Positions 4,125 to 57,166 of a stretch of 64,000 nucleotides of DNA are shown one piece after another (the first letter of the stretch is position 1; the number at the start of each line of letters is the position of its first letter). The DNA lies in assembly GCF_011947195.1 (NCBI RefSeq), contig NZ_JAATVY010000008.1, forward strand, positions 1 to 64,000, written 5' to 3'. This DNA comes from Planosporangium thailandense. GTDB taxonomy: Bacteria; Actinomycetota; Actinomycetes; Mycobacteriales; Micromonosporaceae. Under the pieces are notes generated by a model that was not told where the DNA came from, did no database searches, and worked only from the letters and a program-made list of their open reading frames with translations. A program made the position numbers and the translations under genes.

Positions 4125-5618
4125 ATGGTGTCGTCCGCGGAGAACGGTCCGGGCAGAAAGGCCCGCCGGGGCAGATTGCTGTTCCTCGCGACGGCGCTGA
4201 CCCTGACGGCAGCGACGGCCCTCGCGGGCGCCATGGGTGCGACCCGCGTACTGGGTCGCACCTCGCTGGCCGCGACGTCCACGCCGGTTCCGACCGAGGT
4301 GGCGTTCGCCCTGGAGGAGGGCAGCCGCGACAACACGGTGTTCCTTATGGCGGCGGGGGCGGCCATGAAGACGATCCACGACCTGGGCAACCAGCCCCGC
4401 TGGACCAGCAACAGCAGGGTCTCGGTCGTGACGTTCAAGAGCGATGCGCGCATTGCGGTACCCCTGACGAGCGACCTGCTGAGCACCGAGACCGCGATCC
4501 AGAAGCTCAACGCGCGCGAGGGCGGTGGCACCTGCATCGGCTGCGCGATCCGAATCGCCCAGATCCAGTTCAACGCAGCCGGCACCGCGGGCGCCCACCG
4601 GTTCATCGTCGTGCTGACCGCCGGGAACGAGGGAGAATTCAACACGTACGCCGGTGTAGCCGCGGATGTCAAGAAGGCCGGAGTCACGGTCCTTGCCGTC
4701 GGCCTCGGATTGAAACCGAACATGGACACAATCAACAACCTGGCCAGCGACGTGCCTGGCGTGCAGACCGCGTTCAGACTGGGCGGTGACATCGCCGCAA
4801 GTATCGGTGCGCTCATTCCCAGCCAGCCGTCGCCGGGCCCGAGCGAGAGCGCCTCGCCCAGCCCTAGCACGTCGCCGAGCCCCAGTGCCTCGCCCAGCGC
4901 CAGCACCTCGCCGAGCGTCAGCACCAGCCCGAGTGAGAGCGCCTCGCCGAGCGAGACCCCCACCGCAAGCCCGACCGAAACCACCACACCGAGCGCGACC
5001 CCCACCCCGAGCCCGACCGAAACCACCACACCGAGCGAGACCCCCACCGCAAGCCCGACCGAAACCACCCGCCCCACGGCGAGCGCGACCGCCTCGGCCA
5101 GCCCCACCGCTACGCCAACAGCGAGCGCATCCAGCCCGGCCGGTTCGGTGCCTTCGCCGACCGAGACGACTACCAGCGCCGGCGTGACAGTCGTCGACAG
5201 CAACGGTCAACCGCTCGCGGCCACTCCGGTCCTCTCCACCGGAGCCCGGGTGGGAATCAGTGCCTCGGGGTTCCGGGCCGGGGAGACGGTCAGTGCCACA
5301 GTCTTCTCCACCCCGCGGTCTCTGCCTGCGACGACCGCCGGCGCCGACGGCAGCGTCTCGTACGCCTTCACAGTCCCGGCCAATCTTGAACCGGGCGTCC
5401 ACAAGTTGGTCCTGAGCGGTGCCAGCGCCCACAAGGTCGTGGTCTTTACCGTGACGGCGGCGACGGGCAGCACGTCGCCCGCGGCGTCGGACGGCGGCAT
5501 GCTGGCTAAGACAGGTGTCGGGATCGGCGAGTTGGTACTGCTCGCTCTCGGCCTGCTGCTGGTCGGCGCCGTGGCCGTGCGCTACGGCCACCACTTGCGC
5601 GACCGAAGCAGCGCGTGA
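4125..5618 (+). CDS. Cell-wall anchored vWA-like protein with PST stalk and LAxTG signal
   Basis: Residues 15-50 form an export signal. Residues ~58-225 have a von Willebrand A-like pattern (VAFALEEGSRDNTVFL, then FIVVLTAGNEGEF). The metal-site motif DxSxS is degenerate: EEGS stands at that position, so Mg2+-dependent adhesion is uncertain. Residues ~228-350 are a Ser/Pro/Thr/Glu stalk made partly of near-identical 14-residue units. A beta-rich domain follows. The C-terminus has LAKTG, a hydrophobic segment and a basic tail (YGHHLRDR), matching substrates of class E sortases of Actinobacteria. AAAGGAG lies 7 bases before ATG 4125. No sortase gene is adjacent. Likely displayed on the wall; ligand unknown. 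Confidence 0.85.
   Translation: MVSSAENGPGRKARRGRLLFLATALTLTAATALAGAMGATRVLGRTSLAATSTPVPTEVAFALEEGSRDNTVFLMAAGAAMKTIHDLGNQPRWTSNSRVSVVTFKSDARIAVPLTSDLLSTETAIQKLNAREGGGTCIGCAIRIAQIQFNAAGTAGAHRFIVVLTAGNEGEFNTYAGVAADVKKAGVTVLAVGLGLKPNMDTINNLASDVPGVQTAFRLGGDIAASIGALIPSQPSPGPSESASPSPSTSPSPSASPSASTSPSVSTSPSESASPSETPTASPTETTTPSATPTPSPTETTTPSETPTASPTETTRPTASATASASPTATPTASASSPAGSVPSPTETTTSAGVTVVDSNGQPLAATPVLSTGARVGISASGFRAGETVSATVFSTPRSLPATTAGADGSVSYAFTVPANLEPGVHKLVLSGASAHKVVVFTVTAATGSTSPAASDGGMLAKTGVGIGELVLLALGLLLVGAVAVRYGHHLRDRSSA
4947..5069 (+). repeat. Three 42-bp in-frame tandem repeats (stalk)
   Basis: Units at 4947-4988, 4989-5030 and 5031-5069 are nearly identical and encode PSETPTASPTETTT-type peptides of the stalk. 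Such arrays change copy number by slippage, which would change stalk length without breaking the frame. Confidence 0.8.
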
Positions 5619-7870: not shown

Positions 7871-9862
7871 TCAGACGGGGACCTCGGCGCTCAAGATGAT
7901 CGTGCGCTCGTCCGGCAGGTGAAGGAACTCGGCCTGGCTCGCGGCGTTGTGGGCCAGGACGATGAACAGGCGTTTGCGCCAGGCGGCCAGGCCCGGGCGG
8001 TCGGTGCGTCGCAGCGTGATCTTCGAGACGAAGTACGAGACCTCGTCGAGGGTGAGCCCCTCGGCGACAGGGTGGGCGGCGGCGCGGCGGAGGACCTCGG
8101 GGAAGTCGGTGGGGTCCTGGAAGCCGAACACGGCGTCGACGTGGATGATGCCGTCGTCCGGGTTCCCGAGGTTGTCGATGGTCAGGCGCTCCTCCCAGGG
8201 GACGTGCGGGACGTTCGCGGTCCGACCGGAGATGATCACGATCTTGTTGTGCCGGACGTGGTTGTGCGCGACGTTCGCGCGCAGCGCGAGCGGCGTCGTC
8301 TCCTTGTTCGGGTGCGGGAACACCGCGGTACCCGGCACCCACGGGATGTCCATCGCGTGCAGCTTGTCGATGAAGTCCGGCAGCGGACCCTCCCGTTCGA
8401 CCCGGCGGGCGGTGACGAGTTCCCGCCCACGCTGCCAGGTCACCATGATCGTGAACACGATGGCCGCAATGAGCAGCGTCAGCCAACCACCGTGGGTGAC
8501 CTTGGTCAGGTTCGCGGTGAAGAAGGTCAGTTCGATCGTGCCGAAGACGAACCCGAGCAGCACGACCCGCCAGGCGGCCCAGCCCCACAGCCCCCGCGCG
8601 ACGACCAGGAACAACGTCGTGGTGATCAAGAACGTGCCGGTGACCGCGACGCCGTAGGCGGTCGCCAGCCGCGCCGAGGAGCGGAACGCGAACACCACCA
8701 GCAGGACCGCGGCGAACAGGCCCCAGTTCACCGCGGGCGCGTAGATCTGTCCGTACTCGCGGCGTGAGGTCTGCCGGATCCGCAGGTGCGGCAGGAAGCC
8801 CAGCCGCATGGCCTCCCGCGAGACCGAGAACGCCCCGGAGATCACCGCCTGCGACGCGATCACGGTGGCGGCGGTGGCCAGCACCACCATCGGCAGCCGC
8901 GCCCAGTGCGGTATCAGCAGGAAGAACGGATTGGCCCGGTTGGCCGGGGACGTCAGGATCAACGCGCCCTGACCGAGGTAGTTCAGCGTCAGCGCGGGAA
9001 ACACGATCGCGAACCAGGCCCGGCGGATAGGGGCACGGCCGAAGTGACCCATGTCGGCGTAGAGCGCCTCGGCGCCGGTGATCGCCAGCACCACCGCTCC
9101 CATCGCCACGAACGCGATGAACGGGTGGTCCACCGCGAACAGCACCGCGTAGGTCGGCGACAGCCCGGCCACGATGCCCGGCCGGCGCAGCACCTCCGCC
9201 GCGCCGGCGAGGCCGAGGCAGGCGAACCACACCAACATGACCGGTCCGAATACGGCCCCGACCCGATCGGTGCCCCAGCGCTGGCCGGCGAACAGCAGCG
9301 TCAGGATCACCGCCGCCGCCGGCAGCACGAACACCGCCCACTCCGGCGAGGTGACCTCCAGCCCTTCCACCGCCGACAGCACCGAAATCGCCGGGGTGAT
9401 GACGCTGTCTCCGTAGAACAGGGCGGCGCCGAGCACCCCGAGCGTCATCACCGCTGCGCAGCACCTGCCGCTGGCGCCGCTCAGCGCCCGCCGGGCGAGG
9501 GCGGCCAAGGCCATCACCCCGCCCTCGCCGTCGTTGTCCGCCCGCAGGATGAAGATCACGTACTTGACCGACACGACAAGAGTGATCGACCAGAAGACCA
9601 GCGAGATCACGCCGAACACGTCGTGGGCGTTCGGACGTACCACACCGCCGTCGATCGAGAAGACCGTCTGCATCGAGTACAGCGGGCTGGTGCCGATGTC
9701 GCCGTACACGACACCCAACGCGCCCAGGAGCAGCGCGAATCCGGCGGCGCCACGCGCCGGCAGACGGCCCGGCGGCGACACCGGGGACGTCGTACCGGCT
9801 TGCTCCGCTGTCGCGCCCTCGCCGCCGGCCGCGGTGTGCTCCGTATCCGCCCGTTCCGACAC
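7871..9862 (-). CDS. kup: Kup-type potassium uptake protein
   Basis: A K+/H+ symporter of the KUP/HAK/KT family in the cytoplasmic membrane. The family start is evident (ALGVVYGDIGTSPLYSMQT), followed by RADNDGEGGVMAL, FYGDSVITPAISVLSAVEGL and about twelve membrane segments. A cytoplasmic C-terminal domain follows from ~residue 470 (VPGTAVFPHPNKETTPLAL, VSYFVSKITL). Length (663 residues) is normal. GTG 9862 is preferred because the residues before it are not family-like; the frame is open to 9904. It converges on the ROK gene with an 18-bp gap. No ydaO-type riboswitch was seen upstream. Confidence 0.93.
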   Translation of the reverse strand: MSERADTEHTAAGGEGATAEQAGTTSPVSPPGRLPARGAAGFALLLGALGVVYGDIGTSPLYSMQTVFSIDGGVVRPNAHDVFGVISLVFWSITLVVSVKYVIFILRADNDGEGGVMALAALARRALSGASGRCCAAVMTLGVLGAALFYGDSVITPAISVLSAVEGLEVTSPEWAVFVLPAAAVILTLLFAGQRWGTDRVGAVFGPVMLVWFACLGLAGAAEVLRRPGIVAGLSPTYAVLFAVDHPFIAFVAMGAVVLAITGAEALYADMGHFGRAPIRRAWFAIVFPALTLNYLGQGALILTSPANRANPFFLLIPHWARLPMVVLATAATVIASQAVISGAFSVSREAMRLGFLPHLRIRQTSRREYGQIYAPAVNWGLFAAVLLVVFAFRSSARLATAYGVAVTGTFLITTTLFLVVARGLWGWAAWRVVLLGFVFGTIELTFFTANLTKVTHGGWLTLLIAAIVFTIMVTWQRGRELVTARRVEREGPLPDFIDKLHAMDIPWVPGTAVFPHPNKETTPLALRANVAHNHVRHNKIVIISGRTANVPHVPWEERLTIDNLGNPDDGIIHVDAVFGFQDPTDFPEVLRRAAAHPVAEGLTLDEVSYFVSKITLRRTDRPGLAAWRKRLFIVLAHNAASQAEFLHLPDERTIILSAEVPV

Positions 9863-10162
9863 CCCACAGGCATACCAACCCGCGCGCGCCTCCCCTGACA
9901 GCACCCCCTACCCCGGTCAACGGCGGCTCTCCGGCGGCCCCGGTGGCTCCTCCGCCGACCCGACTCCCTCGAGATCCACTGCGCGGTCGCGGTCCACTCC
10001 GGAACACCGGCACCGCCGCGTCGAACCCTTCACCCGGCGCGGGTGAAGACGAAACGCGGCGGGGCGTGCAGGTTTGGTTGTGCCCGACTCGGTAAGCAGG
10101 GCACCGCTCGTGTAATCCGCAACAGGCCCACCTCGATAAGACGACCGTCGAAGGGGAACGTC
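9863..10162. other. Divergent promoter region between kup and the repeat-protein gene
   Basis: 300 bases holding both promoters. It includes a small inverted repeat (CACCC 10031-10035 with GGGTG 10041-10045), the SigB-like promoter listed separately, and a GAAGGGGAA ribosome site near 10150-10158. Confidence 0.5.
10072..10095 (+). promoter_or_regulatory. Candidate SigB/SigF-type promoter of the repeat-protein gene
   Basis: GTTT at 10072-10075, a 14-base spacer, and CGGTAA at 10090-10095 match the GTTT-N14-GGGTAW consensus of SigB/SigF-class sigma factors with one mismatch. A sigma factor of this class is encoded at 49369 in this window. Prediction only. Confidence 0.4.
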
Positions 10163-10699
10163 ATGACTACTGCGGAGACCCAGCGCGCTCGCGACGCTCA
10201 GGCCCCCACGCGTGAGGGTGAAGGTCTGATGGAGCATCCGCTGCTGTGGGCGGCCCTGATGGGCCGGCGCGAACGCGGCGAATCCATCATCGAACATCCG
10301 CTGCTGTTCGCGGCGATGATGAGCCGGCGCGAGCGCGGGGAATCGATGATCGAACATCCGCTGCTGCTGGCGATGATGATGGGCCGACGCGACCGCGGGG
10401 AATCGATGATCGAGCACCCGCTGCTGCTGGCGATGATGATGGGCCGACGCGACCGCGGAGAATCGATGATCGAGCACCCGCTGCTGCTGGCGATGATGAT
10501 GGGCCGGCGCGAGCGCGGCACATCCATCATCGAGCACCCGCTGATGCTCGCCGCCATGATGACCATGATGGGCCGGCGCGAGCGCGAAGAACAAATGATC
10601 GAGCACCCGCTGCTGCTCGCCGCCATGATGAGCCGGCGTGACCGCGTCGAGTCGATGATCGACAACCCGCTGATGCTCGCGGCGCTGGAGCGCCAGTAG
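10163..10699 (+). CDS. Met/His/Arg-rich 20-residue tandem repeat protein, unknown
   Basis: No known family was recognised. After a 20-residue hydrophilic leader, the 178-residue protein consists of eight copies of a 20-residue unit, consensus SMIEHPLLLAMMMGRRDRGE. One copy has a three-residue insertion (MTM) and the last is degenerate (DNPLMLAALERQ). The invariant core is a Glu-His-Pro-Leu turn, a hydrophobic Met-rich run and an Arg-Arg pair, suggesting stacked short amphipathic helices. No signal peptide or typical membrane segment is present. GAAGGGGAA precedes ATG 10163 by a few bases. A hairpin terminator follows at 10786. Met and His could bind copper or another soft metal, but that is a guess; self-assembly is equally possible. 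Confidence 0.8.
   Translation: MTTAETQRARDAQAPTREGEGLMEHPLLWAALMGRRERGESIIEHPLLFAAMMSRRERGESMIEHPLLLAMMMGRRDRGESMIEHPLLLAMMMGRRDRGESMIEHPLLLAMMMGRRERGTSIIEHPLMLAAMMTMMGRREREEQMIEHPLLLAAMMSRRDRVESMIDNPLMLAALERQ
10223..10699 (+). repeat. 60-bp in-frame tandem repeats, eight copies
   Basis: The array codes the 20-residue units of the repeat protein. Copies 3-5 (about 10343-10522) are almost identical in DNA, pointing to recent duplication; outer copies have diverged mostly at third positions and at Met/Ile and Leu/Phe positions, which suggests selection on the peptide. Confidence 0.9.
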
Positions 10700-10785
10700 A
10701 CGCCGGGCGGCGGGGCCGTACTCCGCCTTTCGCAGGTGGGCGAAGCGTCCCCTGAGCCGATACGGAATCTTCGCCCGCGCGGGCG

Positions 10786-10827
10786 CCGCCCTCCGGTCCG
10801 TCACGGAGACGTCCGACTGGAGGGCGG
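10786..10827 (+). terminator. Hairpin downstream of the repeat-protein gene
   Basis: CCGCCCTCC (10786-10794) pairs with GGAGGGCGG (10819-10827), nine perfect pairs around a 24-base loop. It lies about 90 bases after the stop codon. No U-tract. Confidence 0.6.
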
Positions 10828-10865
10828 GTCACCACAACAGGAACCGGGGGAATCAACTTGACATC

Positions 10866-11179
10866 TCCCCCAACTGAAGCAGGGGGATTCAACCCTCGCA
10901 GGTTGAGCTTTCTACTTCGCCGACCACAGCCGACCCGAACCAACGGCGAGGGACGGTGTACCGCCCATCGGTCTTACCCAGTCTCCACAGACGTTACTTC
11001 CCGCCAGCCCGGCGGTAGGCCCGACCGGCTTGGTTGTCGCCGGCCAGGCGCACAGAAAATTGCACACCTGTTCGCCCACGCGCCACGGATAGCCACACCG
11101 GTCCGCCTTGGCGGCGAACCGGCTTTCCTTGCCCTGCTGACGCAGGAGATCCGTTTCCTCCCCCGCTTGAAAGCGGGGG
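10866..11179. mobile_element. IS200/IS605-like end relic without transposase
   Basis: This ~310-base stretch is bounded by two C5/G5 hairpins: TCCCCC 10866-10871 with GGGGGA 10882-10887, followed by TCAACC/GGTTGA (10889-10906); and CCCCCGCTT 11160-11168 with AAGCGGGGG 11171-11179. Such CCCCC-GCTT-GGGGG hairpins are characteristic of the ends of IS200/IS605-family elements in actinomycetes. No TnpA or TnpB open frame remains. It lies between the repeat-protein gene and the next small gene. Could also be a non-autonomous derivative; family assignment is from memory. Confidence 0.33.
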
Positions 11180-11198
11180 TATCCACGAAAGGAATCTG

Positions 11199-11576
11199 AT
11201 GACACCTGAATCTGGCAGAGCAGCAGGACAGGATCCGGTCGAGGCATTAATCGACGACCTCATCCACGACATACTGAGCGAGGCGGGCCAGCCCGGCGGG
11301 GCCACGGCACGGGGCAGAGGGCCGCTGGGCGGCCTGATCGACGCGATCGCGGCGTCGTCGCGTACGACGGCCCGCCCGTCGATGTTCGAACGGCTCCTCC
11401 TCGCCCAGGTCCTCGCTTCCAGCCTGGCCGACGCGCTCGCGCCCGCACTGGCGGAGACGCTGGCACCCGAGATCATGAAGGCCCTGGAGCACTACGCACC
11501 CGGGAAGCCGGCCGTCAAGGAGCCTGCCGCGGCAGGTGTTTCCCGGGAGAAGGGCCGCAAGGCAGACGAGAAGTAG
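11199..11576 (+). CDS. Small helical protein of unknown function
   Basis: 125 residues, family not recognised. The N-terminal half has an acidic amphipathic helix (PVEALIDDLIHDILSEAGQ). The centre has a Gly/Arg linker and a second helix (PLGGLIDAIAAS). The third is long and strongly amphipathic (MFERLLLAQVLASSLADALAPALAETLAPEIMKALEHYA). The tail is Lys-rich (REKGRKADEK). No signal peptide. GAAAGGAAT lies just before ATG 11199. It follows the repeat-protein gene, separated only by the IS-like relic, so the two may once have been adjacent; both are short, helical and free of known domains. A role in self-assembly or as a phasin-like coat is conceivable but untested. Confidence 0.65.
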   Translation: MTPESGRAAGQDPVEALIDDLIHDILSEAGQPGGATARGRGPLGGLIDAIAASSRTTARPSMFERLLLAQVLASSLADALAPALAETLAPEIMKALEHYAPGKPAVKEPAAAGVSREKGRKADEK

Positions 11577-11825
11577 CGAGGACCGACCGCCGGACCCTGG
11601 ACAGGGGCGGCCCGGCCCACGCAACGTAGGTCACCTGGAGCGCGTGTCGGCGCGGCCGCCGCAGCCGGCGGTCGCGCCACTTCGAGTCCGCTCCGTCCTT
11701 ATGCTCCCCTCTATTTACCCTAGTCTTTACCCTTCCCTCTCCCATCCCGTTCAGCGGTCCTGAACGATGCCGCAGGTAGGCGCCGGGCACCCCACCGGCG
11801 CGTCCCTTGTGGATTGGGAGAGGCA
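11577..11825. promoter_or_regulatory. Leader of the propeller gene with pyrimidine-rich tract
   Basis: The stretch 11693-11752 on the plus strand is almost entirely C and T with two short TTTA/TAGT interruptions, unusually AT-rich for this genome. It lies ~75 bases before the start of the secreted propeller gene. It may contain the promoter or a structured 5' UTR; no consensus was recognised. Confidence 0.35.
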
Positions 11826-14498
11826 TTGTCGCCTGAACTACTGCCCACGCGGCATCGAAAAGTCGCCGTCATCAGTGCGTTGTCCGTCGTCGCCCTCGGC
11901 CTGAGCGCCGCTCCCGCGGCGGCGGCCAAACCGCAGCCCCGCCCGCACCAGGTGGGCTTGCTGGCCAGCACGGCGCACCACAAGAGCGCCACCACCTCGT
12001 CCGGCACGATGAAGGCGCTCGCCGCGCCCGGAGGCGGTGACGCCGACGGCGGCGAGGGCGCCAACGAGATCCAGGAAGGCGCCGACCAGTACGCCGAAGC
12101 GCGCACCTCCCCCGGCGTGGTCGCGCCCGGCGCGTACTCGGCCGCCTGGGCGCAGCTGCAGTCGCTGCGCAAGACCGGCGGCAACTGGACCGACGAGACC
12201 GCGCTGCCGTACAACTCGGACGACCCGCGCTACCGGGACGTCAACTCCAACTCGTCCGGCGGTGCCGGCCAGGTGACCGGCCGGATCACCGGGCTCGCGG
12301 CCGACGACTCCGGTTACGTGTACGCCGGCGCGGCCAACGGCGGCGTGTGGCGCTCGCGTACCGGCGGCGGCAAGTGGGAGCCGATCTCCGACAAGCTCCC
12401 CTCGCCGGCCACCGGTGACCTGCGCCTGGACGGCAAGGGCCGGCTCTGGTATGCCACCGGCGAGGCCAACACCAGCTCGACCGCGTTCATCGGCTCCGGC
12501 GTGTACGTGCTCGCCGACCCGCGCCACGGCCAGTTCCAGCCGGGCAACCGCGTCGGCGGCACCGAGCTCGAGAGCACCATCATCAGCAAGCTGCGCTTCA
12601 TCGGCGACCGGGTCTGGGCCGCCACCAACCGCGGCGTGTGGAGCCACTCCACGATCAATCTGTCCGGACCATGGACAGCGGAGTTCATTCCGAACCCGGA
12701 CTACCTGCCAACCGGCCCGCTCGCCGCGGACCCGAACGCGCCGTACAAGAACATCACCAACGACGTCATCGCCGACCCCAAGGACCCGTCGAAGGTGATC
12801 CTCGCGGTCGGCTGGCGCAGCGGCGACGCGTACAACGGCTTCTACACCAAGCAGAACGGCGCCTGGCAGCGCGTCACGCTCGGCGGTGACATCGCCAGCG
12901 ACGCGGCCAACGTCGGCGCGGTAACCTTCGCGGCCGCCGCGGACGGCTCGAAGTTCTACGCGATCGAGCAGTCGCCGAAGGTGATGGCCGCCAACCCGGA
13001 CAGCGGGCTGATGGGCATCTACGAGGCCGACGGCTCCCCGTTCGGCCCGTGGCACCTGGTCGCCGACTACAAAAAGCTCGCCGCGTCCGGCTCGGCGCTG
13101 ACCGGCGCCGGCTACATGCCGGGCATCCAGTCCTGGTACAACCAGTTCCTGCAGGTGGACCCGACCGACCCGAACCACGTGTACATGGGTCTGGAGGAGG
13201 TCTTCGAGACCAAGGACGCCGGCGCCACCTGGACCACACCCGGGCCGTACTGGAACTTCGGCTTCCCCTGCTGGAACATCGATCCGGGCAGGCAGACCGG
13301 TGACTGCCACCAGACGATCCACGCCGACCAGCACGCGGTGACGATCGGAACGTACAAGGGCAGGTCGTACGTCATCGTCGGCGACGACGGCGGCGCCTAC
13401 CGGCGTCCGGTGCGCGGCCAGGCGGACGCGAGCGGGCACGCCACCGACTGGACGTCGCTGGGCGACGGCACGATGGACGTGCTGCAGTACTACTCGGTCG
13501 GTGTCGGCCTGGACCGCAACAACAAGAAGGCGGGCATCGCCATCAGCGGCGGTCTCCAGGACAACGGCCAGTCCGTCAAGCGCCCCGGCGACAAGGTGAT
13601 GGGCTCCAACTTCGGCGGTGACGGCGGCGACACGATCGTCGACCCGGCCAACGGCTGCAACATCGCCGAGGAGTACGTCTACCTCGCCATGTCGGTGACC
13701 AACAACTGCGCGGTCAACGACGGCTCGTGGACCACCGATCCGGCCAAGGCGACCACCCGCCAGATCGCGCCGCCGGACTCCAAGGACAGCTTGGCCCGGT
13801 TCATCGCGCCGTTCACCTACGACCCCAAGGACACCAAGACCTGGGTCGCGGGCGGGCAGCACGTGTGGGTGCAGCACAAGGGCTGGAACATCCAGTCCGG
13901 TGACGACTGGACCAACGTGTTCGACCTCGGCGACGGCCACGTGGCGACCGCCGTGTCGGTCTCCGGCGGCACGGCGTACGTCGGCTGGTGCGGCCCGTGC
14001 AACAACCAGGGCTTCACCCGAGGAATCGCCGTCGGCAACGTCAACGACCCGGCCAGCTGGCACCAGCTCAACCTCCCGGTCGAGGGTCAGCTACCCAACC
14101 GGTACATCTCCGGCTTCGACGTCGACCCGGCCAACGCCAACCACGTGGTCGTGGCGATCAACGGCTTCAGCCGTCGCTGGACCGAGGGTCCGGGCGCCGG
14201 GATCGGTCACGTCTTCGAGTCCCGCGACGCCGGGGCGACCTGGACCGACATCTCCGGTGACGACCTGCCGGACGTGCCGGCCGACTCGGTGAAGATGCTG
14301 CGGGGCGGCGGCCTCGTCCTCGCCACCGACCTCGGCGTGCTCTACCGGGCGTCGAGCCACGGCAGGTGGACGGTGCTCGGCCGCAACTTCCCGACCACGG
14401 CGGTCATGCAGATCAAGACCGGCCCGTTCGGGAAGCTGTACGCCGCCACCCACGGGCGCGGCATCTGGTCGTACGACCTGAGCAGGCTCGACGACTGA
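11826..14498 (+). CDS. Large secreted beta-propeller protein (sialidase/sortilin-like repeats)
   Basis: A signal peptide (residues ~5-35, ending APAAAAKPQ) leads to an ~850-residue extracellular protein. It has repeated BNR/Asp-box-type strands: GYVYAGAANGGVWRSRTGGGKWEPI, HVYMGLEEVFETKDAGATWT, HVFESRDAGATWTDISG, KLYAATHGRGIWSY. This pattern is seen in WD40/YVTN/BNR exo-sialidase-like and VPS10-like propellers. Several Cys pairs suggest disulfides (FGFPCWN, TGDCHQT). The enzymatic residues of true sialidases could not be verified, so glycoside hydrolase activity is uncertain. TTG 11826 is preferred, with GGGAG five bases upstream; an in-frame TTG at 11814 is the alternative. It is followed by a strong terminator. 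Confidence 0.85.
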   Translation: MSPELLPTRHRKVAVISALSVVALGLSAAPAAAAKPQPRPHQVGLLASTAHHKSATTSSGTMKALAAPGGGDADGGEGANEIQEGADQYAEARTSPGVVAPGAYSAAWAQLQSLRKTGGNWTDETALPYNSDDPRYRDVNSNSSGGAGQVTGRITGLAADDSGYVYAGAANGGVWRSRTGGGKWEPISDKLPSPATGDLRLDGKGRLWYATGEANTSSTAFIGSGVYVLADPRHGQFQPGNRVGGTELESTIISKLRFIGDRVWAATNRGVWSHSTINLSGPWTAEFIPNPDYLPTGPLAADPNAPYKNITNDVIADPKDPSKVILAVGWRSGDAYNGFYTKQNGAWQRVTLGGDIASDAANVGAVTFAAAADGSKFYAIEQSPKVMAANPDSGLMGIYEADGSPFGPWHLVADYKKLAASGSALTGAGYMPGIQSWYNQFLQVDPTDPNHVYMGLEEVFETKDAGATWTTPGPYWNFGFPCWNIDPGRQTGDCHQTIHADQHAVTIGTYKGRSYVIVGDDGGAYRRPVRGQADASGHATDWTSLGDGTMDVLQYYSVGVGLDRNNKKAGIAISGGLQDNGQSVKRPGDKVMGSNFGGDGGDTIVDPANGCNIAEEYVYLAMSVTNNCAVNDGSWTTDPAKATTRQIAPPDSKDSLARFIAPFTYDPKDTKTWVAGGQHVWVQHKGWNIQSGDDWTNVFDLGDGHVATAVSVSGGTAYVGWCGPCNNQGFTRGIAVGNVNDPASWHQLNLPVEGQLPNRYISGFDVDPANANHVVVAINGFSRRWTEGPGAGIGHVFESRDAGATWTDISGDDLPDVPADSVKMLRGGGLVLATDLGVLYRASSHGRWTVLGRNFPTTAVMQIKTGPFGKLYAATHGRGIWSYDLSRLDD

Positions 14499-35849: not shown

Positions 35850-37232
35850 TTACGGCTTCAGTTGCCGGACGAACACGTCCGAGACCTTGTTGGTGTCGCC
35901 GGCGACGAGGTTCGTCGCGTCGGATACGAACAGGACGAACCGACCGTCCGCCGAGAAGACCGGAACAAAGCTGCCCCAGTAGCCGTTGCTCTGCCCGCCG
36001 CTCGTGGCGACGCTGACCCGGGTGGTGGTGCCAGCGACCCGGTCCCGCACGAACACGTCCGAAACCTTGTTGGTGTCCCCGGACACGAGGTTCGACGCAT
36101 CGGATTCGAACGCTACGTACCGGCCGTCCGCCGAGATCGACGGCCAGTCGCTGAAGCCGTTGCTCTGCCCACCCTTGGTGGCGACGCTGACCCGGGTGGT
36201 GGTGCCCGCGACCCGGTCCCGCACGAACACGTCCCAGTCTCCGTTGCTGTCCCCGGACACCAGATTCGTGGCGGCGGACATGAACGCGACGTACCGGCCG
36301 TCGGAGGAGATCGACGGTTCGAAGCTGGGCAGGTCGGCCTGCCGTCCGCCGGCGCCAACGCTCACCCGCGTGGTGGTGCCGGCGACCCGGTCCCGCACGA
36401 ATACGTCTTCCCGGCCATTGGTGTCCCCGGTGACCAGATTGGACGCGAAGGAGTTGAACACCACGTAGCGACCGTTCGCACTTATCGCGGTTTCATCGCC
36501 GTCCACGTCGCCCCCAGCGCTCCAAGCGTTGGCCTGCACGCCCTTGCTGGAGACGCTGACCCGGGTGGTGGTGCCGGCGACGCGGTCCCGCACGAACACG
36601 TCGGACGTCTTGTTGGTGTCCCCGGTGACCAGGTTCGACGCGAAGGAGGCGAAGGCGACGTACCGGCCGTCCGCCGAAATCTTCGGATAGTAGCTCTGGC
36701 CGTTGGCCTGTCCGCCGCCGTTGGCGACGCTGACCCGGGTTGTGGTGCCCGCGACCCGGTCCCGCACGAACACGTCGTCGGTCTTGTTGGTGTCCCCGGC
36801 CACCAGGTTGGACGCATCAGACATGAACGCGACGTACCGACCGTCCGCCGAGATCGACACCCCGCGGCTCGTCCCGTTGGCCTGGCGGCCACCGGTGGCG
36901 ACGCTGACCCGGGTGGTGGTACCGGCGACCCGGTCCCGTACGAAGATGTCGCCGGTTCCGTTGGTGTCTCCGGCCACCAGATTCGACGCCTGCGAGTAGA
37001 ACGCGACGTACCGGCCGTTCGCCGAGATCGCCGAAACACCGGCGGACTTGTTGCCCTGCACCTTGCTGGTCGAGACGCTCACCCGGGTGGTGGTGGGGGT
37101 GAAGGCGGTAGCCGCCGCGGCCGGCTGTTCGGCAACGGCGATGCCGGCCAGTACGGAGGCCGCCACGACGGGCAGGGCGATCGCACGTCGGGCGGATCGA
37201 CCGTTGTTCACGAGACGTGTCGAGATGGTCAC
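35850..37232 (-). CDS. Secreted seven-bladed PD40 beta-propeller
   Basis: 460 residues: a signal peptide ending AAAATAF (~residue 42), then seven tandem ~57-residue blades of very regular sequence. Each blade carries TTTRVSVAT, ISADGRYVAF and ASNLVAGDTN, and blades are joined by DVFVRDRVAG. This matches TolB/PD40-type propeller repeats. The last blade ends SDVFVRQLKP. No catalytic residues are evident; a binding or scaffolding role outside the cell is likely. GTG 37232 is listed; GTG 37211 is possible; neither has a good ribosome site. Confidence 0.88.
   Translation of the reverse strand: MTISTRLVNNGRSARRAIALPVVAASVLAGIAVAEQPAAAATAFTPTTTRVSVSTSKVQGNKSAGVSAISANGRYVAFYSQASNLVAGDTNGTGDIFVRDRVAGTTTRVSVATGGRQANGTSRGVSISADGRYVAFMSDASNLVAGDTNKTDDVFVRDRVAGTTTRVSVANGGGQANGQSYYPKISADGRYVAFASFASNLVTGDTNKTSDVFVRDRVAGTTTRVSVSSKGVQANAWSAGGDVDGDETAISANGRYVVFNSFASNLVTGDTNGREDVFVRDRVAGTTTRVSVGAGGRQADLPSFEPSISSDGRYVAFMSAATNLVSGDSNGDWDVFVRDRVAGTTTRVSVATKGGQSNGFSDWPSISADGRYVAFESDASNLVSGDTNKVSDVFVRDRVAGTTTRVSVATSGGQSNGYWGSFVPVFSADGRFVLFVSDATNLVAGDTNKVSDVFVRQLKP
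35860..37100 (-). repeat. Seven ~171-bp tandem repeats in the PD40 gene
   Basis: The blades are alike at DNA level too: the segment encoding VAGTTTRVSV recurs about every 170 bases with few changes. This indicates recent duplication or gene conversion within the gene. Confidence 0.85.
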
Positions 37233-55619: not shown

Positions 55620-57166
55620 AGCGCCTCGTGCTCGTCCTGCTGGCAGGTGTGTTCGGCGTTCTCGCCTTCCCGTCGGGCCGTGCCGACGCCCACCCGCTCG
55701 GCAACTTCTCGGTCAACCAGTACGAGGGGCTGACCCTGCGACCGGACCGGATCGAGGTCACCGCGGTCGTCGACACCGCCGAGATCCCCACGCTGCAGGA
55801 GCGCGCGGACGTCGACGCCAACCACGACGGCCAGGCCGACGAGGCCGAACGGGCCGCGTACGCGGCGAAGACCTGCCGCGAGCTGGCCGGCGGCTTCGAG
55901 GTCCAGGCGGCGGGCAAGCGTCTGGAGTGGACGGTGACCGGGCCGGCGTTCGAGTACGCGCCGGGCGCGGGCGGTCTGCAGACGAGCCGGCTGACCTGTA
56001 CGCTCACCGGCCCGGCGAAGCTCGGCGCGGGGGCGGGCGTCACGGTCACCAACCGGTGGCGCACCGACCGGGTCGGCTGGCGGGAGATGACCGCCGTCGG
56101 CGACGGGGTACGACTGGTCGACTCCCCGCTGCCGGCGCGCAGCGTCAGCGACCAGCTCCGGTCGTACCCGGCCGATCTGCTCTCCTCGCGGCTGGACGTA
56201 CGTACCGCCTCGCTGCGGACCCAGCCGGCGGGCAGCGGCGCGGACGCCCGCGGCTCGGGGGTCCGACCGGCCGCCGCCGTCGCCGGGTCCGACCCGGTGA
56301 CCCGGTGGATGAACGCCGCGGACCGGCGGCTGCAGCAGGTGGCCGCCGGGCGGCGGATCACGCCGGTGGTGGGGATCCTGGCGGTCCTCGCGGCGGTGCT
56401 GCTGGGGGCCGGCCACGCGGCGCTGCCCGGGCACGGCAAGACGGTGATGGCCGCCTACCTGGCGGGAGAGCGCGGCCGCGTACGCGACGCGATGGTCGTC
56501 GGCGCCACCGTCACGCTGACCCACACGGGCGCGGTCCTGGTGATCGGCGCGCTGTTGAGCGCGTCGAGCGCGCTGGCCGGCGACCGCCTACTCGGCTACC
56601 TCGGCCTGGCCAGCGGCATCCTGGTGACCGCGGTCGGCGTCGGCATGCTGGTGGGCGCGCTCCGCCGCCGGGGTGGTCACGGCCACTCCCATCACGGCCA
56701 CTCCCACTCGCATCACGGTCACGGCCACTCCCACTCGCATGGCGACCACTCGCCTCACGGCCACCCCCACTCGCATGGCGACCACTCGCATCACGACCAC
56801 GACCACGGCGGCTCGACCCGCGTGGGGAAGCTCGGGCTGGCGGGCATCGGGCTCGCCGGCGGCCTCGTACCGAGCCCGTCGGCCCTCGTCGTCCTCCTCG
56901 GCGCGATCGGCCTGGGCCGCGCCGGTTTCGGGATCCTGCTCGTCGTCGGGTACGGGCTGGGCATGGCCGCCGCGCTGACCGGAGCCGGCCTGCTCCTGCT
57001 GTTCGTCTCGCGCCGCGTCACGGCCACGGCCCGCTGGCCGCGACTGGTCCGGCGGCTGTCGCCGTTCCTGGCCCGGGTGCCCGCGGCGACATCCACCCTG
57101 ACCGCGGGTCTGGTGACGATCGTCGGTCTCGGGCTGGCGCTGCGCGCCGCCGCCGGGGTGCTCTGA
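55616..57166 (+). CDS. NicO/RcnA-like nickel-cobalt transporter with His-rich loop
   Basis: 516 residues. Signal peptide to ~residue 25 (FPSGRADAHPLGNFSVNQYE), then a ~215-residue extracellular beta domain with an EF-hand-like loop (DANHDGQADEAE at ~64-75). From ~240 six membrane helices carry NicO motifs: GAGHAALPGHGKTVMAAYLA and VTLTHTGAVLVIGALL. Between helices lies a ~45-residue loop almost entirely of His, Gly, Ser and Asp (~360-400), expected to bind Ni, Co or Zn. GTG 55616 overlaps the TPR stop codon. Probably an exporter of divalent metal. Confidence 0.88.
   Translation: MKRLVLVLLAGVFGVLAFPSGRADAHPLGNFSVNQYEGLTLRPDRIEVTAVVDTAEIPTLQERADVDANHDGQADEAERAAYAAKTCRELAGGFEVQAAGKRLEWTVTGPAFEYAPGAGGLQTSRLTCTLTGPAKLGAGAGVTVTNRWRTDRVGWREMTAVGDGVRLVDSPLPARSVSDQLRSYPADLLSSRLDVRTASLRTQPAGSGADARGSGVRPAAAVAGSDPVTRWMNAADRRLQQVAAGRRITPVVGILAVLAAVLLGAGHAALPGHGKTVMAAYLAGERGRVRDAMVVGATVTLTHTGAVLVIGALLSASSALAGDRLLGYLGLASGILVTAVGVGMLVGALRRRGGHGHSHHGHSHSHHGHGHSHSHGDHSPHGHPHSHGDHSHHDHDHGGSTRVGKLGLAGIGLAGGLVPSPSALVVLLGAIGLGRAGFGILLVVGYGLGMAAALTGAGLLLLFVSRRVTATARWPRLVRRLSPFLARVPAATSTLTAGLVTIVGLGLALRAAAGVL

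What the first reader, a model, noticed from the sequence alone, without database searches (positions are those of the whole stretch)
10163..11576. Met/His/Arg repeat protein and a small helical neighbour of unknown role
The 178-residue protein is almost wholly eight 20-residue units (EHPLLLAMMM-GRR core), with three central units nearly identical in DNA, and matches no family I know. A second short, strongly amphipathic protein follows, separated only by an IS-like relic. Repetitive Glu-His-Pro plus Met-rich hydrophobic plus Arg-Arg units suggest stacking into a filament or sheet, or soft-metal binding. A stress-type promoter seems to precede the first gene.
Basis: partly seen in the sequence, partly recalled or inferred. 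Interest (0 to 1): 0.72.

Follow-up and report, generated by a model that had tools for sequence, protein, structure and literature searches.

The report
Paired repeat protein and helical partner
A bacterial gene for a protein built of many copies of one 20-residue unit sits beside a gene for a small helical partner, and the two keep company across scattered soil actinomycetes, which points to an undescribed two-part system of unknown function.

Summary
Window 10163-10699 encodes 178 residues with eight units, seven of them EHPL-type; window 11199-11576 encodes a 125-residue helical protein. Neither window protein reached a curated cut-off in Pfam or NCBIfam.

The gain is comparative. I collected 48 partner genes from Planosporangium, Dactylosporangium, the Streptosporangiaceae/Actinomadura group and Streptomyces. 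In 45 of 48 a repeat gene lies just upstream on the same strand; two more begin at a contig edge with only the last unit visible; one lacks it. In one 298-genome sample both genes occur in 19 genomes, one alone in 2, neither in 277. Unit number runs from about 3 to 10, while the unit core is under purifying selection (pN/pS below 1 in 42 of 42 genes tested). A stem-loop lies between the genes in most loci. SigB-like promoters precede 7 of 10 tested copies in one group; the window has a weaker one.

Metal binding is disfavoured, not excluded: Met positions shift between groups and His is mostly lost in one. A gas-vesicle role is not supported.

Best reading: a stress-linked repeat scaffold of variable valency with a dedicated helical partner. 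The module is well shown; the mechanism is inferred.

The parts
10163..10699 (+). Repeat gene: 178-aa protein, short polar N-terminal region then eight units spaced 20-23 residues
10229..10696 (+). Tandem unit array (units start at 10229, 10289, 10349, 10409, 10469, 10529, 10598, 10658)
   Evidence: the last start computed from residue 166
10072..10096 (+). SigB-like promoter candidate GTTTGG-N13-GGTAAG, 91 bases before the start codon
   Evidence: a -10 element GGTAAG is listed for one promoter in PMC8346170 (passages); weak, and not clearly kept in the P. flavigriseum orthologue
10149..10159 (+). Ribosome-binding region of the repeat gene
   Evidence: by eye
10738..10776 (+). First intergenic stem (10738-10745 with 10769-10776), present in the P. 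flavigriseum orthologue
   Evidence: positions by eye
10786..10827 (+). Main intergenic stem-loop (10786-10794 with 10819-10827), CCGCCCTCC/GGAGGGCGG
   Evidence: stem-loops in the same place in other groups
10863..11190 (+). Inserted mobile-element relic (approximate ends) with hairpins near both ends, separating the two genes in this genome
11199..11576 (+). Partner gene: 125-aa protein with three predicted helices and a LADALAPAL stretch that is invariant in 18 aligned relatives

Best explanation
This is a two-gene module. Gene 1 makes an intracellular scaffold: a string of similar units of about 20-23 residues, each a short wholly hydrophobic helix (P-LLLAAL-M) flanked by Arg residues and acidic linkers. 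Gene 2 makes a small three-helix partner. I propose that the units dock on the partner's invariant Ala/Leu-rich C-terminal helix (LADALAPALAEALAPEI), so that one scaffold gathers several partners into an oligomer or condensate-like body. Valency, not exact length, is what matters, because unit number changes freely. A SigB-like promoter switches the module on under osmotic or developmental stress, and a stem-loop between the genes makes the two products in unequal amounts. Shown: the conserved pair, the unit, protein-level selection on it, the stem-loop, and the promoter motif in one group. Inferred: that the products bind each other, that they assemble, and all of the regulation.
For: Pair adjacency in 45 of 48 partner loci on the same strand, the distance from repeat stop to the start of the partner profile match being -1 to 214 bases, and 499 in the window because of the insertion; two more (L027, L032) show the last unit at a contig edge. 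Co-occurrence in what is by its handles the same 298-genome sample: both 19, partner only 1, repeat only 1, neither 277; Fisher 8.5e-28, ignoring shared ancestry. Two versions of the pair exist in the window's genus, each keeping both genes. By eye, genes flanking the pair are not shared between groups in the 14 loci listed. Unit core under purifying selection: pN/pS below 1 in 42 of 42 genes with at least three usable units, median 0.33. Unit counts 10, 7 and 4 in three relatives with close partner proteins (L022, L023, L065). Stem-loop: mean z -2.66 and z below -2 in 27 of 44 intergenic regions, against mean -1.24 and 11 of 40 upstream controls; compensatory change in 7 of 17 pairs over 7 loci of the Streptosporangiaceae group and 2 of 17 pairs over 13 Streptomyces loci. 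Promoter GNNT-N14-16-GGGTAY in 7 of 40 upstream regions, shuffle mean 0.26, maximum 3.
Against: No direct evidence that the two proteins touch. The structure models are too poor to show docking or assembly. The promoter motif was seen by eye first and then tested; all 7 strict matches lie in related Streptosporangiaceae-group genomes (7 of 10 tested there), none in the tested Streptomyces, Dactylosporangium, Planosporangium or small-genome copies; 5 of 45 genes were left out of that test because no start was located. The seven loci were chosen from eleven; the four left out (L017, L022, L023, L065) have z of -1.31 to 0.32. The upstream control also has negative z, so part of the fold signal is background. 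Distribution is patchy: 12 of 300, 20 of 298 and 13 of 343 genomes.
Confidence: 0.4

Rival explanations
1. The repeat protein folds by itself into a helical solenoid or filament, one short helix per unit, and the partner is a cap or chaperone.
For: Units are regular, and the first and last units differ from the middle ones, as caps do. AlphaFold2 places one short helix in each of the eight units.
Against: Model confidence is very low and no residue reaches pLDDT 70. Unit spacing varies, mostly 18 to 23 residues. No solved structure matches the repeat protein by sequence.
Confidence: 0.25
2. The repeat protein coats or stabilises gas vesicles, as GvpC does with its 33-residue repeats.
For: Gas-vesicle family PF00741 is found in 13 of 16 and 19 of 30 partner-bearing genomes. 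GvpC is also a repeat protein that binds helices of a shell protein (PMC10185304, passages).
Against: Genomes without the pair carry it nearly as often: 28 of 50 against 32 of 46, Fisher p 0.21; Streptomyces 9 of 14 against 17 of 25; Streptosporangiaceae family 14 of 21 against 11 of 25, p 0.15. 14 of 46 partner-bearing genomes have none; some of these are small and may be incomplete, but G138 is a single contig. In G000, G722 and G723 the pair lies far from, or on another contig than, the PF00741 genes. The unit core is not amphipathic.
Confidence: 0.04
3. Soft-metal (Cu, Ag) or haem binding by Met and His.
For: The window protein is 15% Met and 4% His. His precedes the Pro in 80% of 249 units, and Met at +7 is kept in 58-76% of units in four groups and 91% in the window's own version.
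Against: In the second Planosporangium version His falls to 17% and Met at +7 to 12%, although other Met positions appear there. Met is only about 0.04 of unit residues in Streptomyces. Neither window protein has Cys.
Confidence: 0.08
4. A toxin-antitoxin-like or defence pair of two small genes.
For: Two small adjacent genes with patchy distribution.
Against: No PADLOC match for either protein. No match to the partner in the phage or plasmid records, or confirmed in viral contigs, nor to a repeat protein in plasmids. One orphan of each gene exists (L021, L094), so neither is obviously harmful alone (inference).
Confidence: 0.06

Closest known systems
GvpC, gas-vesicle reinforcing protein
   Same: Tandem repeats thought helical, which bind a helix of a shell protein (PMC10185304, passages)
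   Different: 33-residue amphipathic repeat in Anabaena. Here units of about 20-23 residues whose core is not amphipathic, and partner-bearing genomes that lack PF00741
Multivalent linker proteins such as EPYC1 and CsoS2 (papers listed; details recalled)
   Same: Repeated short motifs joined by flexible charged linkers, each docking a partner surface (recalled for those; inferred here)
   Different: Those gather Rubisco. No sequence relation was tested, and the partner here is a small protein of no known family
SigB-type stress promoters of Streptomyces coelicolor
   Same: -35 GNNT for promoters of osmotic-stress sigma factors, and GGGTAC/GGGTAT among the listed -10 elements (PMC8346170, passages)
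   Different: Only the promoter motif is shared; no resemblance of regulon members to this pair was tested

Membership tests
GvpC / gas-vesicle accessory protein | Gas-vesicle shell genes present in the same genome | tested here: not met
   PF00741 absent from 14 of 46 partner-bearing genomes, some of them small and perhaps incomplete
GvpC / gas-vesicle accessory protein | 33-residue amphipathic repeat | tested here: not met
   Spacing mostly 18-23; hydrophobic moment of the unit core 0.04
Met/His soft-metal binding protein | Conserved Met or His ligands in each repeat | tested here: inconclusive
   His before Pro 64-100% in five groups, 17% in one; Met at +7 58-91% in five groups, 12% in the same one
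Multivalent short-motif scaffold (EPYC1-like in action) | Repeated conserved motif with variable copy number and variable linkers | tested here: met
Multivalent short-motif scaffold (EPYC1-like in action) | Each motif binds a defined partner | not testable with these tools
   No complex prediction or binding data; only genetic linkage
Known curated families (Pfam, NCBIfam) | Window protein above the curated cut-off | tested here: not met
   all hits below cut-off. Among relatives, scattered Pfam hits such as Acyl-CoA_dh_1 in 3 of 15 repeat proteins (best E 2.3e-6) and AvrPtoB_bdg in 3 of 15 (best 5.3e-6), inconsistent and not examined further
SigB-type promoter | GNNT and GGGTAC/T at suitable spacing | tested here: inconclusive
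   Strict match in 7 of 40 upstream regions, all in one group; degenerate in the window

The most novel reading that the evidence does not exclude
A new kind of bacterial assembly system: a repeat scaffold whose valency is tuned by gaining and losing units, with a dedicated helical partner, made in a ratio set by a stem-loop under stress, building an undescribed intracellular body in sporangium-forming actinomycetes and Streptomyces.
Probability: 0.3. Interest if true: 0.85.

Novelty: categorically new. Interest (0 to 1): 0.62.

Why it matters
A two-gene module kept together across distant actinomycetes, and matching no curated family in the libraries searched, hints at an assembly that has not been looked for in organisms used for antibiotics. 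The freely changing number of similar units makes it a natural series for testing how valency controls assembly.

Tried and rejected
Gas-vesicle coating and a defence role were tested and set aside; metal binding was tested and lowered, not excluded. On rechecking I raised metal binding from 0.05 to 0.08, because Met at +7 is better kept than I first wrote. Pfam hits below cut-off for the window protein (AvrPtoB_bdg, Ank_3, HD_3) and scattered hits in relatives (cut-offs not shown for them, alignments not examined) were not taken as kinship because they differ between members. PHROGs gave three weak hits of unknown function. The PDB profile hit of the partner to a designed armadillo protein (4d49, E 0.0009) covers 41 helical positions, with no stretch passing on its own, and was not taken as kinship. 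I ran no fold search because both models are low in confidence. Rfam found nothing in window 9000-13000. Rows dropped: G083 (E 2.1e-5, stops inside); G357 and G389 (marginal, not examined); three genes with too few usable units from the selection test; five genes without a located start from the promoter test; three intergenic regions too short to fold; four loci of one group from the covariation fold.

Papers: PMC8346170, PMC3184153 and PMC10185304 were seen as passages only; PMC5927463 as abstract and outline; others only as search listings. Searches for anything in print on this pair: the unit peptide (0 papers), actinobacterial multivalent tandem-repeat proteins (1 unrelated paper), DUF2267 in actinobacteria (0). 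Subscription papers are mostly not held, and full protein databases such as nr were not searched.

Full report
What is in the window. The repeat gene is at 10163-10699 and the partner gene at 11199-11576, both on the + strand. The repeat protein has a short polar start and eight units spaced 20 to 23 residues. Seven units carry EHPL[LM], against at most one in 5000 shuffles. The window lies in a 7.0-Mb genome in 114 contigs. Of the three other genomes of its genus that are held, G002 has contigs matching records titled Planosporangium flavigriseum, while the pair-bearing contig of G003 matches a record titled Dactylosporangium sp. MAG. I therefore call the genus Planosporangium-like.

No known family. 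Neither window protein reached a Pfam or NCBIfam cut-off, PADLOC gave nothing, and PHROGs gave three weak hits of unknown function for the repeat protein. Among 18 partner proteins one weak Pfam hit appeared. Among 15 repeat proteins scattered hits appeared in up to 3 members each, the best at E 2.3e-6; they disagree between members. There was no PDB match for the repeat protein at E up to 1, and only a 41-position helical match for the partner profile.

The pair is conserved. A scan of genome contigs gave 17 partner loci. Genome searches gave 12 of 300 in the window's family, 20 of 298 in the family of a Nonomuraea genome, 13 of 343 in the genus of a Streptomyces genome, and in a class-wide sample of 394 only the window's own genome plus two marginal hits. 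Merged, and with one weak hit (G083) dropped, these are 48 distinct loci in 46 genomes. A repeat ORF lies upstream on the same strand in 45 of 48; the distance to the start of the partner profile match is -1 to 214 bases, and 499 in the window. L027 and L032 begin inside the repeat gene at a contig edge, with only the last unit visible. Nonomuraea indica (L021) lacks it. In what is by its handles the same 298-genome sample, searched once with each gene, both occur in 19, the partner alone in 1 (G715, N. indica), the repeat alone in 1 (G825, a short three-unit orphan, L094) and neither in 277. The Fisher value of 8.5e-28 ignores shared ancestry. By eye, genes within about 4 kb of the pair are not shared between groups in 14 loci; the two Dactylosporangium loci share theirs.

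Two versions in one genus. The window's genome and P. flavigriseum each carry a second pair, in a setting that looks the same in four genomes of the genus. There the repeat gene follows a protein with DUF2267 and pterin-4a-dehydratase-like domains (tested for the G001 copy), with two MEDS proteins nearby, one with a STAS domain and one with a histidine-kinase-like ATPase domain (tested for the G002 copies). Such domains are typical of sigma-factor control (recalled). In the partner tree the window version lies beside the Streptosporangiaceae group (86/77, not firm) and the second version beside Streptomyces (96/88); neither lies with the Dactylosporangium group of the window's own family. This suggests that the pair moves or duplicates as a unit.

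The unit. One search took 249 units from 45 proteins, leaving out most C-terminal units; the Pro is invariant by construction of the pattern. Leu at +1 to +3, Ala at +4, Leu or Met at +6 and Arg at +9 and +10 are the commonest residues, except that the second Planosporangium version prefers Val at +2. His before Pro stands at 80% overall, 64 to 100% in five groups and 17% in that version. Met at +7 is kept in 58-91% of units in five groups and 12% in that version, where Met is common at +5 and +6 instead. Unit pairs within a gene give pN/pS below 1 in 42 of 42 genes with at least three usable units (of 45), median 0.33, and 0.44 in the window gene; such pairs are not independent. Counts run from 3 to 10 (minima at contig edges, in a masked gene, and where the first degenerate unit is missed). 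Three relatives with close partners have 10, 7 and 4.

Structure. AlphaFold2 gave one short helix per unit at pLDDT 51.5, and three helices for the partner at pLDDT 59.5. These cannot show how either protein folds or binds. The unit core is hydrophobic all round (moment 0.04), and the partner is moderately amphipathic in its first helix and the end of its third. By eye, neither protein has a signal peptide or a membrane-length hydrophobic stretch; no predictor was run.

RNA and promoter. A stem-loop lies between the genes in most loci: mean z -2.66 over 44 regions, 27 below -2 (the window region cut before the insertion, three regions too short, L021 absent). The 110 bases before the repeat gene gave mean -1.24 and 11 of 40 below -2, so some of this is background. 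Compensatory changes occur in 7 of 17 pairs over seven loci chosen from eleven of the Streptosporangiaceae group (those left out have z of -1.31 to 0.32) and in 2 of 17 pairs over 13 Streptomyces loci. A run of four T occurs in 1 of 47 intergenic regions, so these do not look like classic terminators. GNNT-N14-16-GGGTAY occurs in 7 of 40 upstream regions against a shuffle mean of 0.26, all 74 to 87 bases before the start and all in one group, where 10 were tested. PMC8346170 gives -35 GNNT for osmotic-stress SigB homologues and lists GGGTAC and GGGTAT among -10 elements (passages). The window has GTTTGG-N13-GGTAAG at -91. A pattern written after seeing it occurs in 0.05% of 2000 shuffles, so that number is generous.

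The insertion. Relative to P. flavigriseum, about 330 bases lie at the start of the partner gene in the window, with hairpins near both ends; the exact junctions are my reading, since the aligner placed the gap a little further on. The right-end hairpin folds better than all but 1 of 200 shuffles, the left one not significantly (43 of 200). The right end has one further partial match in the genome, 77% over 94 bases. The left junction TTGAC and the hairpins recall IS200/IS605 elements (recalled, not tested). The partner keeps its frame and a ribosome site, and pN/pS against P. flavigriseum is 0.36.

Gas vesicles. PF00741 is in 32 of 46 partner-bearing genomes and 28 of 50 without the pair (Fisher p 0.21), so there is no clear link.

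Judgement. The pair as a conserved module is firm. That it is a variable-valency scaffold with a docked partner is my best inference, at 0.4. The rating 'categorically new' means that no known family or system fitted in the searches named here; it does not claim a proven new mechanism.

Noticed in passing
window 10863-11190 (approximate): A mobile-element relic with hairpin ends sits at the partner's start site; the 44 other adjacent pairs have a distance of at most 214 bases. The partner stays open.
   Followed up: partly
L021 around 8001 (Nonomuraea indica) and L094 2111-2356 (G825): One orphan partner without the repeat gene and one orphan three-unit repeat gene without the partner nearby.
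   Followed up: partly
L008, L009, L010, L011 around the second pair: A DUF2267 plus pterin-4a-dehydratase-like protein just upstream, and nearby MEDS-STAS and MEDS-ATPase proteins, in a setting that looks the same in four genomes of the genus.
   Followed up: partly
window 35865-37095: Two arrays of 174-base tandem repeats (about three copies each) in the TRF table.
   Followed up: no
window 56677-56806: Short tandem repeats whose consensus reads His-rich in one frame.
   Followed up: no
window 4839-5069: Ser/Thr/Pro-rich tandem repeats within a long + strand ORF (4125-5618).
   Followed up: no
G748 contigs 35 and 302, G802 contigs 92 and 155: Assemblies appear to break inside the repeat gene, its two ends lying at the ends of two contigs, so the family is probably under-counted in draft genomes.
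   Followed up: partly
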